Origin: Tangfeifania diversioriginum
GTDB lineage: Bacteria; Bacteroidota; Bacteroidia; Bacteroidales; Prolixibacteraceae
DNA: 38,746 nucleotides
NCBI GenBank assembly: GCA_945873105.1
Contig: CAMCBW010000050.1
Location: 1-38,746, forward strand
Reading direction: 5' to 3'
A program made the position numbers and the translations under genes. Below are positions 7,899 through 29,472 of this stretch, piece by piece; positions within the stretch are counted from its first letter, which is position 1; each line of letters opens with the position of its first letter. The notes beneath the pieces are model-generated. The model saw nothing but the letters and a program-made list of their open reading frames with translations, was not told the origin of the DNA and made no database searches.

Positions 7899-8207
7899 CT
7901 ACAAAACGGGCTTTAGCCCAATCGTTTGGAAACTAAATTCAATCCGAACACCCAATTCCGAAGCCATTTTATTGATGGTGGCCAAAGTCAGATTGAATTT
8001 ACCGTTTTCAATCCTTGAAATTTGCCCCTTATCCACTCCCAGTTTTTCGGCAAGTTGACCCTGGGTAAGTTTCCTTTGCTTTCGAAGTTCCTTAAATTTA
8101 TACGCCAGGATTTCTGCTTTTAATTCACTCTCGAAAATCTCTCTTCCAATGGTCCCTCGTTTGCCTGCAATTTCGTCCAAAAGTTCATCATGGGTAGTTG
8201 TTTTCAT
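7899..8207 (-). CDS. XRE-family antitoxin, HigA-like
   Basis: A 102-residue protein with a helix-turn-helix at about residues 45-90: LTQGQLAEKLGVDKGQISRI, then ENGKFNLTLATINKMASELG. The N-terminal arm has no recognised fold. It is encoded downstream of a HigB/Gp49-type toxin with a 93-nt gap, the toxin-first order usual for higBA. The HTH should bind operator DNA and repress the module; two inverted repeats in the gap are candidate sites. Because the gap is unusually wide for higBA, the antitoxin may also have its own promoter. Confidence 0.85.
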   Translation of the reverse strand: MKTTTHDELLDEIAGKRGTIGREIFESELKAEILAYKFKELRKQRKLTQGQLAEKLGVDKGQISRIENGKFNLTLATINKMASELGVRIEFSFQTIGLKPVL

Positions 8208-8236
8208 ACTATAATAATTTGTTTTTTAAACGTAGT

Positions 8237-8268
8237 ATGGAACTCCATGTTGATGAAATTATTTTCAT
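8237..8268 (-). promoter_or_regulatory. Two inverted repeats, candidate antitoxin operator
   Basis: ATGGA-AC-TCCAT (8237-8248) and ATGAAA-TTAT-TTTCAT (8253-8268) lie side by side, 30-61 nt upstream of the antitoxin start. Paired short palindromes next to an XRE gene are typical operator architecture; binding is inferred. Confidence 0.4.
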
Positions 8269-8300
8269 ACCCTTGGGTGTTGGGAAACAACATGTTCGTT

Positions 8301-8630
8301 TCATAATTCAAAATATTTTCTCCTTAGTTTTTCTGCTTTCTCAATCTCCTTGACCGGAGTCTTTTGTCTCTTCTTAAAAATTCCATGCGTATAGATTACA
8401 AATACGTTATCTTCCTTAACCCAAAAAGCAAAAAGCCGATATTGCATCCCTTCTGCCATTGCTCTAAACTCCCAAATATCAGCTCCTGCTAATTTTTTAA
8501 AAATCGCAGGGTCTCTTACCTGCTGGGCCTTACTTACATTGAATAGCAATTTCTTGGCAGCTTTCCGATCTATGCTTCGGATAAATTCGGTGGCTGGAAC
8601 CACATATTTTACTTCAAAATTAATTTCCAT
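8301..8630 (-). CDS. HigB/Gp49-type toxin (RelE superfamily)
   Basis: A 109-residue protein of the phage-derived Gp49-like/HigB family. The diagnostic C-terminal part is present: WEFRAMAEGMQYRLFAFW, then a beta strand and THGIFKKRQKTPVKEIEKAE. These toxins are ribosome-dependent or free mRNA interferases. The N-terminus (FEVKYVVPATEFIRSIDRKA) fits the ATG at 8630 aligned with the family. A consensus promoter abuts that start, so the transcript would be leaderless or nearly so. It is encoded ahead of its XRE antitoxin on the minus strand. Complete and apparently intact. Confidence 0.85.
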   Translation of the reverse strand: MEINFEVKYVVPATEFIRSIDRKAAKKLLFNVSKAQQVRDPAIFKKLAGADIWEFRAMAEGMQYRLFAFWVKEDNVFVIYTHGIFKKRQKTPVKEIEKAEKLRRKYFEL

Positions 8631-9005: not shown

Positions 9006-9224
9006 AAATTGGGATATTTCCTTGTTTCAGGAATGTCAGTAAGGGCAAATGGCACGGATTCCTAGTTTCAGGAAAGCCAGGAATGGCAAATGGCACAGAT
9101 CCCTTGTTTCAGGAAAGTGCTAGGTGGCAAATGGCAGCGATTCCTAATTTCAGGAAGGTGAGAGGGGGCAAATGGCACAAATACCTTATTTCATGAAATC
9201 TGGAGGTTGTCAATGGCAAGAATT
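9006..9224 (+). repeat. 41-bp tandem array, five units plus a partial one
   Basis: Units begin at 9006, 9047, 9088, 9129 and 9170 (lengths 41, 41, 41, 41, 42); a sixth decays after about 13 nt. Consensus features are AAATGGCA at positions 1-8, GATTCCT at 11-17, TTTCAGGAA at 20-28, and GGC at 39-41. Positions 29-38 vary strongly between units. TTCCT and AGGAA can pair as a 5-bp hairpin in units 1, 2 and 4 of the row; this is broken in the third and fifth. The period is not a multiple of three and the units contain stops, so it is not coding. It ends about 100 nt before the DUF6261 start. Confidence 0.85.
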
Positions 9225-9322
9225 GCGTATTTATAGAGCTGCTGACGACTAAAAAACGAGAAAATACGAAATTGAGTTATTAATAGTTCCCTTAATTATT
9301 TACTATTAAATTTTTCATTCGT

Positions 9323-10057
9323 ATGATTACTGCAATTGATCTTGTGAAACTTCGCAATGCGGAGTTCCTCACATTTGTTGCGACTTACTCAGAGATAGTC
9401 GCTGTTAACGATCCTGCTAAGCTGAATATTGCAACGCAACACGCTGCTTTCAAATTGAAGCTTGACGAAATGTCGGAGCTTTTCAAACGAGAAAGGAGCA
9501 GCATCTTCACCCAGGCACTGGTGCAGCTGGATGAACGCCGCGACGATGCCATCACCGGGTTTGCTACTGTTATCAATGGTTTTTGCTACCATTTCAATGC
9601 GGAGACCAAACAGGCAGCCAGGCTTCTAAACGAAAGCCTGATCCTGTACGGTGTTGGCATTGCCCGGTTGAATTTACAGGCCGAAACCTCTACCATTTCT
9701 GGAATCGTACACGATTGGGAGACCCAACCGAACCTTTCTGCCGCAATTACCAGGCTTGGCCTTTCGGATTGGGTGGCGGAACTGAAAACAGCCAACCAAT
9801 TGTTCGATCAGAAATACCTTGAACGGACGCGCGAGTATGGCGCTGCCAATCCCAGTACCATGAAGGTAAAACGGGAGGAGATGACAGTTGCCTACTACGA
9901 ATTGCGCAAATTCATCGAAGCCAACTCAGTTGTCAATCCCGGTGCAGCTTACGATAAATTGATTGGTGAGCTGAATGCACTGATTGATCAGTACAATTTA
10001 CTGCTAAACACACGATCTGCGGAGCCAAACCCTGAGTCGACTCCTGCCAACAATTAA
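9323..10057 (+). CDS. DUF6261 family protein
   Basis: This 244-residue protein resembles the DUF6261 family of Bacteroidetes. It is predicted to be almost entirely helical, soluble, and without a signal peptide or catalytic-looking motif. Conserved-looking blocks are the N-terminal LRNAEFLTF, LDERRDDAITGFATVINGF near residue 70, and AYDKLIGELNALIDQYNLLL at the C-terminus, followed by a polar tail. Function unknown. The gene stands alone between the 41-bp array and a strong hairpin terminator. Codon use looks more like the core genes than the AT-rich neighbours. Repeat-gene association is the point of interest; no role is claimed. Confidence 0.7.
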   Translation: MITAIDLVKLRNAEFLTFVATYSEIVAVNDPAKLNIATQHAAFKLKLDEMSELFKRERSSIFTQALVQLDERRDDAITGFATVINGFCYHFNAETKQAARLLNESLILYGVGIARLNLQAETSTISGIVHDWETQPNLSAAITRLGLSDWVAELKTANQLFDQKYLERTREYGAANPSTMKVKREEMTVAYYELRKFIEANSVVNPGAAYDKLIGELNALIDQYNLLLNTRSAEPNPESTPANN

Positions 10058-10071
10058 CGCTATTCTTTTCG

Positions 10072-10100
10072 AAAGCCTGCCATTGGGAACAGCAGGCTTT
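10072..10100 (+). terminator. Hairpin terminator after the DUF6261 gene
   Basis: AAAGCCTGC (10072-10080) pairs perfectly with GCAGGCTTT (10092-10100) across an 11-nt loop, 15 nt after the stop. The following T tract is short, so termination strength is uncertain. Confidence 0.6.
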
Positions 10101-10161
10101 CATTAGCCATTCAAACAATAAGTAATTTCGGATTTTAACAGCCTATTTTCCCTTTTGATAG

Positions 10162-10192: not shown

Positions 10193-10414
10193 GTGAAAGT
10201 ATTTTCAATAACCATACCTGACGACAAGGAAAACACCTTCATCGAATTAATGAACAGTGTTTCATTCGTCAACAAAATCGAGGTTGTTTCCAGTGAAAAT
10301 GAAATTCCTTCATGGCACAAAGTAATTCTTGACCAAAGAATTGAAGATAAAGCCGGAGATTACCTTAAGTGGGATGACTTGCAAAAAGATCTAAATGCAA
10401 AATATGGCTTATAA
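10193..10414 (+). CDS. Antitoxin-like protein, partner of ParE/RelE toxin
   Basis: A 73-residue protein beginning with a beta-strand (VFSITIPDDKENTFIELM). The C-terminal part, DYLKWDDLQKDLNAKYG, is the short acidic helix that wraps the toxin in many RelB/addiction-module antitoxins. The start is GTG at 10193; no in-frame ATG gives a sensible N-terminus and a -7 box is correctly spaced upstream. It overlaps the toxin gene by 11 nt. It lacks an obvious HTH; the N-terminal strand could still form a ribbon-helix-helix-like dimer. Identity rests mainly on context. Confidence 0.7.
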   Translation: MKVFSITIPDDKENTFIELMNSVSFVNKIEVVSSENEIPSWHKVILDQRIEDKAGDYLKWDDLQKDLNAKYGL

Positions 10415-10697
10415 GCTATTTGTCAATCCATCTGCAAGGCTTGATATCATTGAGGCTATTGACTGGTATAACGAAAAACAGCCTAATCTGGGATTTCGTT
10501 TATACAAATACATTCAAACCACACTTGAAATTATACGAAGCAACCCTTCGGGGTTTGCCGTTCGATATAAAACAATTCATACTGCAATTGTAAAAAAATT
10601 CCCTTACATGATTCACTATATTGTGGATCAACAGACCGAAACCATCAGCGTTCTGGCTGTTCTTTGTATGCATCGCAGTCCCGACTCGTGGATTTAA
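10404..10697 (+). CDS. ParE/RelE superfamily toxin
   Basis: A 97-residue protein with the family pattern. An N-terminal strand and helix (FVNPSARLDIIEAIDWYNEKQ) lead into GFRLYKYIQTTLEIIRSNP, then VRYKTIHTAIVKKFPYMIHY and the final strand ISVLAVLCMHRSPDSW. This order is typical of ParE-like gyrase inhibitors and RelE-like RNases; which activity applies cannot be told from the sequence. The ATG at 10404 (MAYKLFV) is preferred over 10395 because family members start directly before this strand. It overlaps the antitoxin gene and is the third TA module in 7 kb. Confidence 0.85.
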   Translation: MAYKLFVNPSARLDIIEAIDWYNEKQPNLGFRLYKYIQTTLEIIRSNPSGFAVRYKTIHTAIVKKFPYMIHYIVDQQTETISVLAVLCMHRSPDSWI

Positions 10698-17062: not shown

Positions 17063-17397
17063 GCAACAAGTCTGCAAAAATCGACAACCTTGCCAAGCTC
17101 AGGATGGAAAAGAGCAAATTGCAGAGCTACTGCACCTACCAGGAAAAATTGATCGGTTACAAGCTCGAATACCTGAGGGAAAACTACTCTGAGTTATTGA
17201 GCGATGCCGTACTTCCCTACAGCAAATCGCAGAACAACGATGTAAACAACCTGCTGGATTCCGTCAACAACATCATTGTCAGGATGGTTCCCTCTGCATT
17301 TGAAGGCAAGTTCTTGCCCAAAATTATGCTCAAACTGATTGAGATCCTGATGATCCAAACTTTTAAGAAGACAAGAAATGAAAAGGGTAAAGGGTAA
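17059..17397 (+). CDS. Small coiled-coil protein of the YtxH-holin operon
   Basis: A 112-residue helical protein, unrecognised at family level. The N-terminal half is lysine-rich and likely coiled coil (LAKLRMEKSKLQSYCTYQEK); a mildly hydrophobic stretch (FLPKIMLKLIEILMIQTF) closes the protein. The ATG at 17059 overlaps the holin stop; an upstream in-frame ATG (16993) would overlap the holin gene by 70 nt and is rejected. Its last four codons (KGKG) and its stop codon are formed by the heptamer array that begins here, showing that the array has grown into the coding end. Confidence 0.7.
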   Translation: MSNKSAKIDNLAKLRMEKSKLQSYCTYQEKLIGYKLEYLRENYSELLSDAVLPYSKSQNNDVNNLLDSVNNIIVRMVPSAFEGKFLPKIMLKLIEILMIQTFKKTRNEKGKG

Positions 17398-17540
17398 AGG
17401 GTAAAGGATAAAGGTTAAAGGATAAAGGATAAAGGTTAAAGGTTAAAGGATAAAGGTTAAAGGATAAAGGATAAAGGTTAAAGGTTAAAGGTTAAAGGAT
17501 AAAGGATAAAGGATAAAGGATAAAGGATAAAGGATAAAGT
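17382..17540 (+). repeat. Heptamer array (TAAAGGN), about 21 units
   Basis: From 17388 the sequence is 21 consecutive 7-nt units of TAAAGG followed by G, A or T, with no change of length; the first units form the end and stop codon of the preceding gene. Because 7 is not divisible by 3, TAA appears in all three sense frames every 21 nt. Similar shorter arrays follow lpxA, infB and pheS. Confidence 0.95.
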
Positions 17541-17647: not shown

Positions 17648-17688
17648 CTTTATCCTTTATCCTTTATCCTTTAACCTTTATCCTTAAA
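17648..17688 (-). repeat. Heptamer array downstream of lpxA
   Basis: About five to six TAAAGGN units read on the minus strand, the sense strand of lpxA, beginning about 7 nt after its stop codon. Same unit as at 17388, opposite orientation. Confidence 0.85.
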
Positions 17689-27300: not shown

Positions 27301-27379
27301 CATCCAGAACTACAACGATGTACACGAAGGCGACTTTATTGAGGCTTTTGAGCAGGTGGAGGTCGCTAAAACGTTGTAA
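24317..27379 (+). CDS. infB: Translation initiation factor IF-2
   Basis: A 1020-residue IF-2, the GTPase that recruits initiator tRNA to the 30S subunit. An N-terminal IF2N module ([19 protein letters not shown]) leads into a long charged, Pro/Ala/Lys-rich linker to about residue 420. A second IF2N-like module ([20 protein letters not shown]) follows. The G domain has GHVDHGKT near residue 526, DTPGHEAF near 575 and NKVD near 629; EF-Tu-like and C-terminal domains follow to the end. The linker has three copies of a short G(K/S)(I/V)(D/E)L motif. A heptamer array begins at the stop codon. Confidence 0.97.
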
Positions 27380-27408
27380 GGATAAAGGTTAAAGGATAAA
27401 GGTTAAAG
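27377..27408 (+). repeat. Heptamer array overlapping the infB stop
   Basis: About four TAAAGGN-type units; the first TAA is the infB stop codon. The sense strand is again the purine-rich strand. Confidence 0.85.
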
Positions 27409-29385: not shown

Positions 29386-29472
29386 CTTTATCCTTTATCC
29401 TTTATCCTTTAGCCTTTATCCTTTAGCCTTTATCCTTTATCCTTTATCCTTTATCCTTTATCCTTTATCCTT
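29386..29472 (-). repeat. Heptamer array downstream of pheS
   Basis: About twelve units read as TAAAGGN (some TAAAGGC) on the minus strand, starting 2-3 nt after the pheS stop. The opposite strand is open in all frames and produces spurious YPLSF-repeat reading frames. Confidence 0.92.

What the first reader, a model, noticed from the sequence alone, without database searches (positions are those of the whole stretch)
9006..9322. 41-bp repeat array with variable 7-10-nt segments upstream of a DUF6261 gene
Five units of 41, 41, 41, 41 and 42 nt are seen directly. Units 2 and 3 differ at 3 of the first 30 positions but at all of positions 31-37; other pairs show the same contrast. That is a repeat with very short hypervariable segments, most degenerate at its downstream end. 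It is non-coding, most units can form a TTCCT/AGGAA hairpin, and it ends about 100 nt before the isolated DUF6261 gene, which has its own terminator. Segments are too short for CRISPR spacers. It could be a structured RNA, an array of protein sites controlling DUF6261, or a repeat recognised by the DUF6261 protein. A functional link is inference.
Basis: partly seen in the sequence, partly recalled or inferred. Interest (0 to 1): 0.72.

Follow-up and report, generated by a model that had tools for sequence, protein, structure and literature searches.

The report
Phased DNA arrays beside DUF6261 genes
Genes of an uncharacterised bacterial protein family usually sit next to rows of 41-42-letter DNA repeats, a spacing of four turns of the double helix, and copies of the same rows lie elsewhere in many of the genomes examined, which points to an unstudied DNA-binding system.

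Summary
The array is real: 41-bp units at 9018, 9059, 9100, 9141 and 9182 plus a degenerate sixth, ending about 90 bp before the DUF6261 start codon. It is not local. Of 71 non-redundant DUF6261 ORFs (>=200 aa), 61 have an upstream array whose best period among 20-70 bp is 41 or 42 (score >=16; 55 at >=24, against 2 of 209 control ORFs at >=24). Units differ between loci but share geometry: a palindrome in most, often a second dyad half a unit away, and conserved blocks about every 10 bp, i.e. one face of B-DNA. RNA explanations are not supported: the window array folds no better than shuffles on either strand and arms show no G:U preference. Of 26 gene-linked arrays tested, 21 have remote "orphan" arrays of the same unit, though 0 of 3 in the window's genome; at three sites orphans diverge with a gene-linked array. 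Best reading: DUF6261, predicted all-helical with no Foldseek match, binds its own and remote cognate arrays. Binding is inferred. A second family, PQLLE, has 21/42-bp arrays. Paper searches found no description.

The parts
9018..9232 (.). 41-bp repeat array: five full units (9018, 9059, 9100, 9141, 9182) and a degenerate sixth from 9223
   Evidence: TRF, match-score extension, unit table
9018..9033 (.). first copy of the imperfect palindrome TTCCTtgtttcAGGAA (dyad A of the unit); recurs every 41 bp
   Evidence: direct reading; not significant for this array alone (p 0.23)
9244..9322 (+). leader between array and start codon, conserved in the paralogue on C25 (84%) and, by eye, on C16
9323..10057 (+). 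DUF6261 gene (244 aa), predicted all-helical
   Evidence: Pfam PF19775 E 7e-40; AlphaFold2 mean pLDDT 94.4; Foldseek against PDB: no match at E<=0.001
10071..10101 (+). GAAAGCCTGC...GCAGGCTTTC inverted repeat after the gene, terminator-like; a similar one follows the C16 paralogue
   Evidence: direct reading; no terminator scan was run

Best explanation
The array is a row of double-stranded DNA sites for the DUF6261 protein encoded next to it. Each 41/42-bp unit is four turns of B-DNA, with conserved half-sites about one turn apart, a two-fold axis in a palindrome and often a second axis half a unit (20.5-21 bp, two turns) away, so protein subunits would line up on one face. Most paralogues would recognise their own unit at their own gene and, in many genomes, at 1-4 remote arrays, and could hold these chromosomal sites together or mark them; the home array could also set the gene's own expression. 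SHOWN: the array, its period, symmetry and phasing across loci, the linkage to the gene, remote arrays of the same unit, co-divergence at three sites. INFERRED: that DUF6261 is the binder. SPECULATIVE: bridging or organising as the purpose.
For: Linkage: 55 of 71 ORFs vs 2 of 209 controls at score >=24 (Fisher p 4e-41), 61 of 71 at >=16; a gene met later on a Parabacteroides distasonis plasmid also has a 42-bp array, score 87. Symmetry: 192 dyad peaks vs 42 in shuffles over 58 arrays, commonest spacings 42, 41 and 20.5 bp; palindrome p<=0.05 in 38 of 56 arrays; position exactly half a unit away has mean percentile 0.80, Wilcoxon p 1.8e-9, and is the best distant dyad in 14 of 56. Conserved blocks at +-5 and +-16, minima at 0, +-11 and +-20.5 over 46 arrays; a similar pattern between gene-linked and orphan arrays. 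Remote arrays of the same unit for 21 of 26 gene-linked arrays tested. Co-divergence: at the L107 site the G806 array matches G806's own gene-linked array over 312 bp and those of the other species over at most 72 bp; at L159 and L103 the G795 array matches G795's own best. Two-part build: PQLLE halves are duplicates (hhalign 98%; model) and its arrays have 21-bp repeats.
Against: No binding was tested, and no known DNA-binding domain or Foldseek match was found. The window's own array has no significant palindrome alone and the window's genome shows no orphan (0 of 3 arrays; draft of 99 contigs). DUF6261 halves are only weakly alike (59%, E 9e-5) and DUF6261 and PQLLE show no homology (2.7%). 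My written prediction on gene presence failed in part: G795 has all three genes foretold, but of six foretold absences in G806 and G013 three were wrong (notes, result). Orphans at fixed sites: 0 of 6 site-genome pairs without the cognate gene, 6 of 22 with it (p 0.29), so no proof of dependence. Site L176 in G795 matches other species' arrays better than its own; at L107 the G013 array matches its sister G795 better than its own; L157 looks like an array left behind when the gene moved.
Confidence: 0.6

Rival explanations
1. Selfish or REP-like satellites: the arrays are copied or mobile DNA that DUF6261 helps to spread or maintain, as RAYT transposases are proposed to do for REPINs.
For: A gene beside its palindromic repeat, with further copies in that genome; some copies are colinear whole-array duplicates (L087/L175 best diagonal 0.86 vs mean 0.55; L089/L163 0.70 vs 0.49); orphan sites often differ between species.
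Against: Few copies (1-4 remote sites), as arrays of 75-587 bp; no nuclease or transposase family in Pfam for the window protein; the L107 site holds an array in all four species compared.
Confidence: 0.16
2. The array is bound by another protein (a nucleoid protein or regulator) and DUF6261 is only its regulated neighbour.
For: No DNA-binding domain is recognised in DUF6261; PQLLE, without detected homology, has similar arrays.
Against: Units differ between most paralogues of one genome while the neighbouring gene is of one family; a single shared factor could hardly read them all.
Confidence: 0.15
3. Type III toxin-antitoxin-like: the array is transcribed as a repeat RNA that restrains a DUF6261 toxin.
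For: Short tandem repeats directly upstream of one gene.
Against: No folding excess for the window array on either strand (other arrays were not folded); no wobble preference over 46 arrays; no Rfam match reaching a gathering score in 8 loci; remote arrays without a DUF6261 gene nearby.
Confidence: 0.05
4. Neutral satellite DNA with no function.
For: Tandem repeats arise by slippage; some DUF6261 genes have none.
Against: 55 of 71 vs 2 of 209; the period stays at 41/42 while the sequence changes; symmetric conservation profile.
Confidence: 0.04

Closest known systems
Iteron plasmids (Rep protein with two-turn direct repeats beside its gene; handcuffing)
   Same: Rows of sites about two helical turns apart next to the gene of the presumed reader; arrays elsewhere could be paired by it. 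The iteron facts are recalled; only a search listing with starts of abstracts was seen
   Different: No Rep family match, a model without strands, chromosome-scale contigs in the genomes sampled, several paralogues with different units
REP/REPIN repeats with RAYT transposases
   Same: Palindromic repeats near a gene, with further copies in that genome (abstract and section list of PMC3116915 seen)
   Different: Whole phased arrays, few copies, no transposase family match
Type III toxin-antitoxin (ToxIN, CptIN, TenpIN)
   Same: Tandem repeat upstream of one gene (search listing only; details recalled)
   Different: No RNA folding excess, all-helical protein, orphan arrays without the gene
PQLLE family (NF052641)
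   Same: About 220 aa, all-helical model, 21/42-bp arrays upstream in 22 of 29 ORFs
   Different: A 21-bp period is prominent; no homology to DUF6261 detected

Membership tests
Pfam PF19775 (DUF6261) | profile match above the curated cut-off | tested here: met
   136.9 bits vs cut-off 27
CRISPR array | near-identical repeats separated by unique spacers of usual length (about 30 nt, recalled) | tested here: not met
   unit of 41 with variable stretches of about 7-10 nt; a CRISPR-like array in G033 shows period 64-67
CRISPR array | cas genes nearby | not tested
   only four ORFs around the array were scanned
Type III toxin-antitoxin | structured repeat RNA | tested here: not met
   window array z 0.14 and -0.08; no wobble preference over 46 arrays; transcription not testable here
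Type III toxin-antitoxin | ToxN-like endoribonuclease fold with beta strands (recalled) | tested here: not met
   predicted structure has helices only; Pfam gives DUF6261 only
REP/RAYT | Y1/HUH transposase beside the repeats | tested here: not met
   Pfam gives DUF6261 only
REP/RAYT | palindromic repeats dispersed in the genome | tested here: inconclusive
   remote arrays for 21 of 26 gene-linked arrays, but 1-4 sites each and 0 of 3 in the window's genome
Iteron/Rep | winged-helix Rep initiator (recalled) | tested here: not met
Iteron/Rep | sites phased by whole helical turns next to the gene | tested here: met
   periods 41/42; dyads 20.5/21 bp apart in part of the arrays
Partition centromere (ParABS and the like) | partner NTPase | not tested
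   flanking genes were not annotated beyond four ORFs of the window

The most novel reading that the evidence does not exclude
A new class of bacterial site-specific chromosome-organising systems: all-helical proteins built of two halves (clear for PQLLE, weak for DUF6261), each paralogue with its own address made of helically phased two-turn sites, present at its gene and at a few remote places, which it bridges; one genome here has 14 DUF6261 matches and could thus carry many orthogonal systems.
Probability: 0.3. Interest if true: 0.93.

Novelty: categorically new. Interest (0 to 1): 0.85.

Why it matters
A protein family labelled only 'unknown function' gains a strong, testable lead: a candidate DNA address readable from sequence. 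If the proteins read their arrays, this is a large set of largely distinct protein-DNA pairs from a fold for which Foldseek found no solved relative, and possibly an unknown layer of chromosome organisation in Bacteroidota, gut species included.

Tried and rejected
Structured RNA: folding of the window array on both strands, Rfam on 8 loci (five matches up to E 1, all below the families' gathering scores), G:T vs A:C mismatches (222 vs 286 cells, expected 381 vs 396; 52 vs 71 events, p 0.10; the slight lean is to A:C). Chance: shuffles and control ORFs. Defence system: PADLOC best for DUF6261 E 0.017; no PHROGs or NCBIfam match up to 0.1 for two DUF6261 proteins. Phage or plasmid gene: 0 phage records, 1 plasmid record. 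Known fold: no Foldseek match at E<=0.001 for DUF6261 or PQLLE. PDB by sequence: two 'Tet4 Variant' entries (E 2e-4 and 0.001, no single stretch passing) and an ESAT-6-like protein (E 0.04); taken as helical chance matches, not followed up.

Rows dropped or negative: of 79 ORFs, 8 under 200 aa were left out; of 71, ten do not count as 41/42: L009 (best 54, weaker 41) and nine below score 16 (L042, L069, L068, L036, L026, L022, L095, L056, L065; L065 has masked bases upstream). Score 16 is close to the largest shuffle value (17), hence the count at 24. In one search several arrays were over-extended by a loose threshold and two were runs of N; no count uses those extensions. One search compared 31 pairs (5 orphans left out beforehand) and its offset profile rests on those with a clear dyad (25). 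Matches in reverse orientation were first taken as evidence against RNA; symmetric units match either way, so they get no weight. An apparent mirror placement around the origin in G033 did not recur in G035 and G710 by hand arithmetic and was dropped. Gene directions come from longest-ORF calls, without a control for gap types; two of my notes overstate the convergent share and give 0 of 7, which the recount makes 0 of 6.

Papers: searches. DUF6261 occurs in one paper (PMC10376253, listing only, not opened). Nothing on these arrays was seen in the listings; the library lacks most subscription papers and preprints. Of one paper (PMC3116915) I saw abstract and section list; no other was opened.

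Full report
OBSERVATION. The window holds a 41-bp tandem array at 9018-9232: units at 9018, 9059, 9100, 9141, 9182 and a degenerate one at 9223. Its self-match score is 86; 200 block shuffles reach 17. The gene after it, 9323-10057, is DUF6261 (E 7e-40).

THE ARRAY GOES WITH DUF6261 GENES. The same genome has two close paralogues (66% identity) and a distant one. Both close paralogues carry a 41-bp array upstream with a different unit, that of C16 still related to the window's (64% over 199 bp); the distant one (L036) has none. DUF6261 ORFs were collected from 61 genomes (own and relatives; 15 with a match), 395 genomes of the class (7), 395 of the phylum (12, of which 11 over the cut-off) and 12 public loci; these sets overlap. 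After removal of duplicates 79 ORFs remained; 8 under 200 aa were left out. Of the 71 left, 61 have an upstream array whose best period among 20-70 is 41 (36 ORFs) or 42 (25) at score 16 or more, and 55 at score 24 or more; one has 54; nine are below 16, one of them masked. Among 209 other ORFs in 400 kb of genome G033, 2 have a 41/42 array at score 24 or more; one of these arrays (L107) proved to be a remote copy of a DUF6261 array, the other (L100) matched none. A gene met later on a Parabacteroides distasonis plasmid also has a 42-bp array in its upstream gap.

ANATOMY. Units of most loci share no sequence (one search lists the exceptions), but they share geometry. In 58 arrays, 192 dyad peaks occur against 42 in shuffles; the commonest spacings are 42, 41 and 20.5 bp. 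A palindrome is significant at p<=0.05 in 38 of 56 arrays (22 at p<=0.01); the window's own is not (0.23). The position exactly half a unit from the first dyad is also unusually symmetric (mean percentile 0.80, Wilcoxon p 1.8e-9; best distant dyad in 14 of 56). Averaged over 46 arrays, conservation peaks at +-5 and +-16 and is lowest at 0, +-11 and +-20.5 from the dyad: about one block per turn of B-DNA. 41-42 bp is four turns (helical repeat recalled). The variable stretches are the minima between blocks.

DNA RATHER THAN RNA. Folding of the window array as RNA is no better than shuffles on either strand (z 0.14, -0.08); other arrays were not folded. In the palindrome arms of 46 arrays, single changes to G:T (52) are not commoner than to A:C (71; p 0.10), while 37 changes keep the pair with both sides changed (no shuffle control for that last number). 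A stem in RNA should tolerate G:U on one strand. Rfam gives no match reaching a gathering score in the 8 loci searched.

REMOTE COGNATE ARRAYS. In genome G033, three arrays met in the control stretches had the units of three DUF6261-linked arrays elsewhere in that genome. Searches with 26 gene-linked arrays found remote arrays of the same unit for 21; the two misses outside the window's genome are L064 and L093, and the window's genome gave 0 of 3. These 26 are a part of those collected (8 from G033, 6 from G310, 4 from G035, 3 from G710, 3 from G000, 1 each from G013 and G009). Matches were in the array's own genome or, for G033 queries, in G013 of the same genus. In the 36 remote loci examined, no ORF of 90 aa or more matched DUF6261 in the stretch held (mostly 4 kb each side); 16 lie in convergent gaps, 17 in tandem, 2 in divergent, 1 unknown (L160 and L161 appear to be one site twice, and L103, counted tandem, looks convergent by eye). 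Convergent gaps hold no promoter of the flanking genes; tandem gaps may. Gene-linked and remote arrays agree best at the dyad offsets where units agree among themselves (25 pairs with a clear dyad).

CO-DIVERGENCE AND GENE PRESENCE. Ten G033 orphan sites were looked up in three species of the same genus. The L107 site has an array in all three. The G806 array there matches G806's own DUF6261-linked array over 312 bp (76%) and those of the other species over at most 72 bp; the G795 array matches its own best; the G013 array matches that of its sister G795 best and its own second. L159 and L103 sites in G795 match G795's own array best. Against this, the L176 site in G795 matches other species' arrays better than its own, and the L157 site in G795 is the gene's own place, so L157 looks like an array left behind. 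Weak or unrelated period-42 signals at the L158, L163 and L164 sites matched no DUF6261-linked array of the four genomes; in G806 and G795 a PQLLE gene lies near the L163 site. Before the last search I noted that G795 should have the genes of L084, L087 and L034 and that G806 and G013 should lack them. G795 has all three; of the six foretold absences three held (L084 in G806, L087 in G013, and none for L034; L087 is present in G806 and L034 in both; L084 is present in G013 with a degenerate array), so in fact two of six held. At fixed sites an orphan was seen in 0 of 6 pairs without the gene and 6 of 22 with it (two further pairs were not fetched; p 0.29).

THE PROTEIN. DUF6261 is predicted with high confidence as helices only (mean pLDDT 94.4), with no Foldseek match at E<=0.001. 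Its halves are weakly alike (59%, E 9e-5). A second family, PQLLE (NF052641), came up because one control array (L102) stood before a truncated copy. Of 29 PQLLE ORFs, 22 have an upstream array with best period 21, 42 or 63 and score of at least 20 (counted; some are near-identical copies and a few start codons were misplaced). Its halves are clearly duplicates (98%, E 9e-14), as in the model. No homology to DUF6261 was detected (2.7%). Two halves in the protein and two turns per half unit in the DNA suggest one half per 21 bp; that is inference.

CONCLUSION. Shown: a widespread, phased, symmetric DNA array tied to DUF6261 genes, with remote arrays of the same unit for most gene-linked arrays tested outside the window's genome. 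Open: what the home and remote sites do together. The systems it resembles (iteron/Rep, REP/RAYT, type III toxin-antitoxin, CRISPR) each fail at least one defining feature tested here.

CORRECTION WITHIN THE REPORT. Where the Against line says that three of six foretold absences were wrong, the exact count is four wrong and two right, as set out above.

Noticed in passing
L102:5180-5693; L190-L219: PQLLE family genes (NF052641) carry 21/42-bp arrays upstream in 22 of 29 ORFs; a truncated copy in G033 keeps its array.
   Followed up: partly
window 7899-8630 and 10395-10697: Toxin-antitoxin-like genes flank the DUF6261 gene: Gp49 family with an HTH gene on one side, ParE-like on the other.
   Followed up: no
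window 17382-17539, 17648-17685, 27378-27408, 29386-29472: Heptamer tandem repeats (AAAGGAT / CTTTATC and relatives) in several places of the window.
   Followed up: no
L100:5400-5662 and L115:17846-17995 (G033): Arrays of period 42 that match nothing else among the loci held; perhaps another family or a decayed one.
   Followed up: partly
L104:1-11758 (G033): A long CRISPR-like array of period 64-67.
   Followed up: no
L160 and L161 (G033:C1 3950800-3959000 and 31200-39400): Two stretches near the contig ends share the same flanking genes and array, perhaps an uncut circular overlap in the assembly.
   Followed up: no
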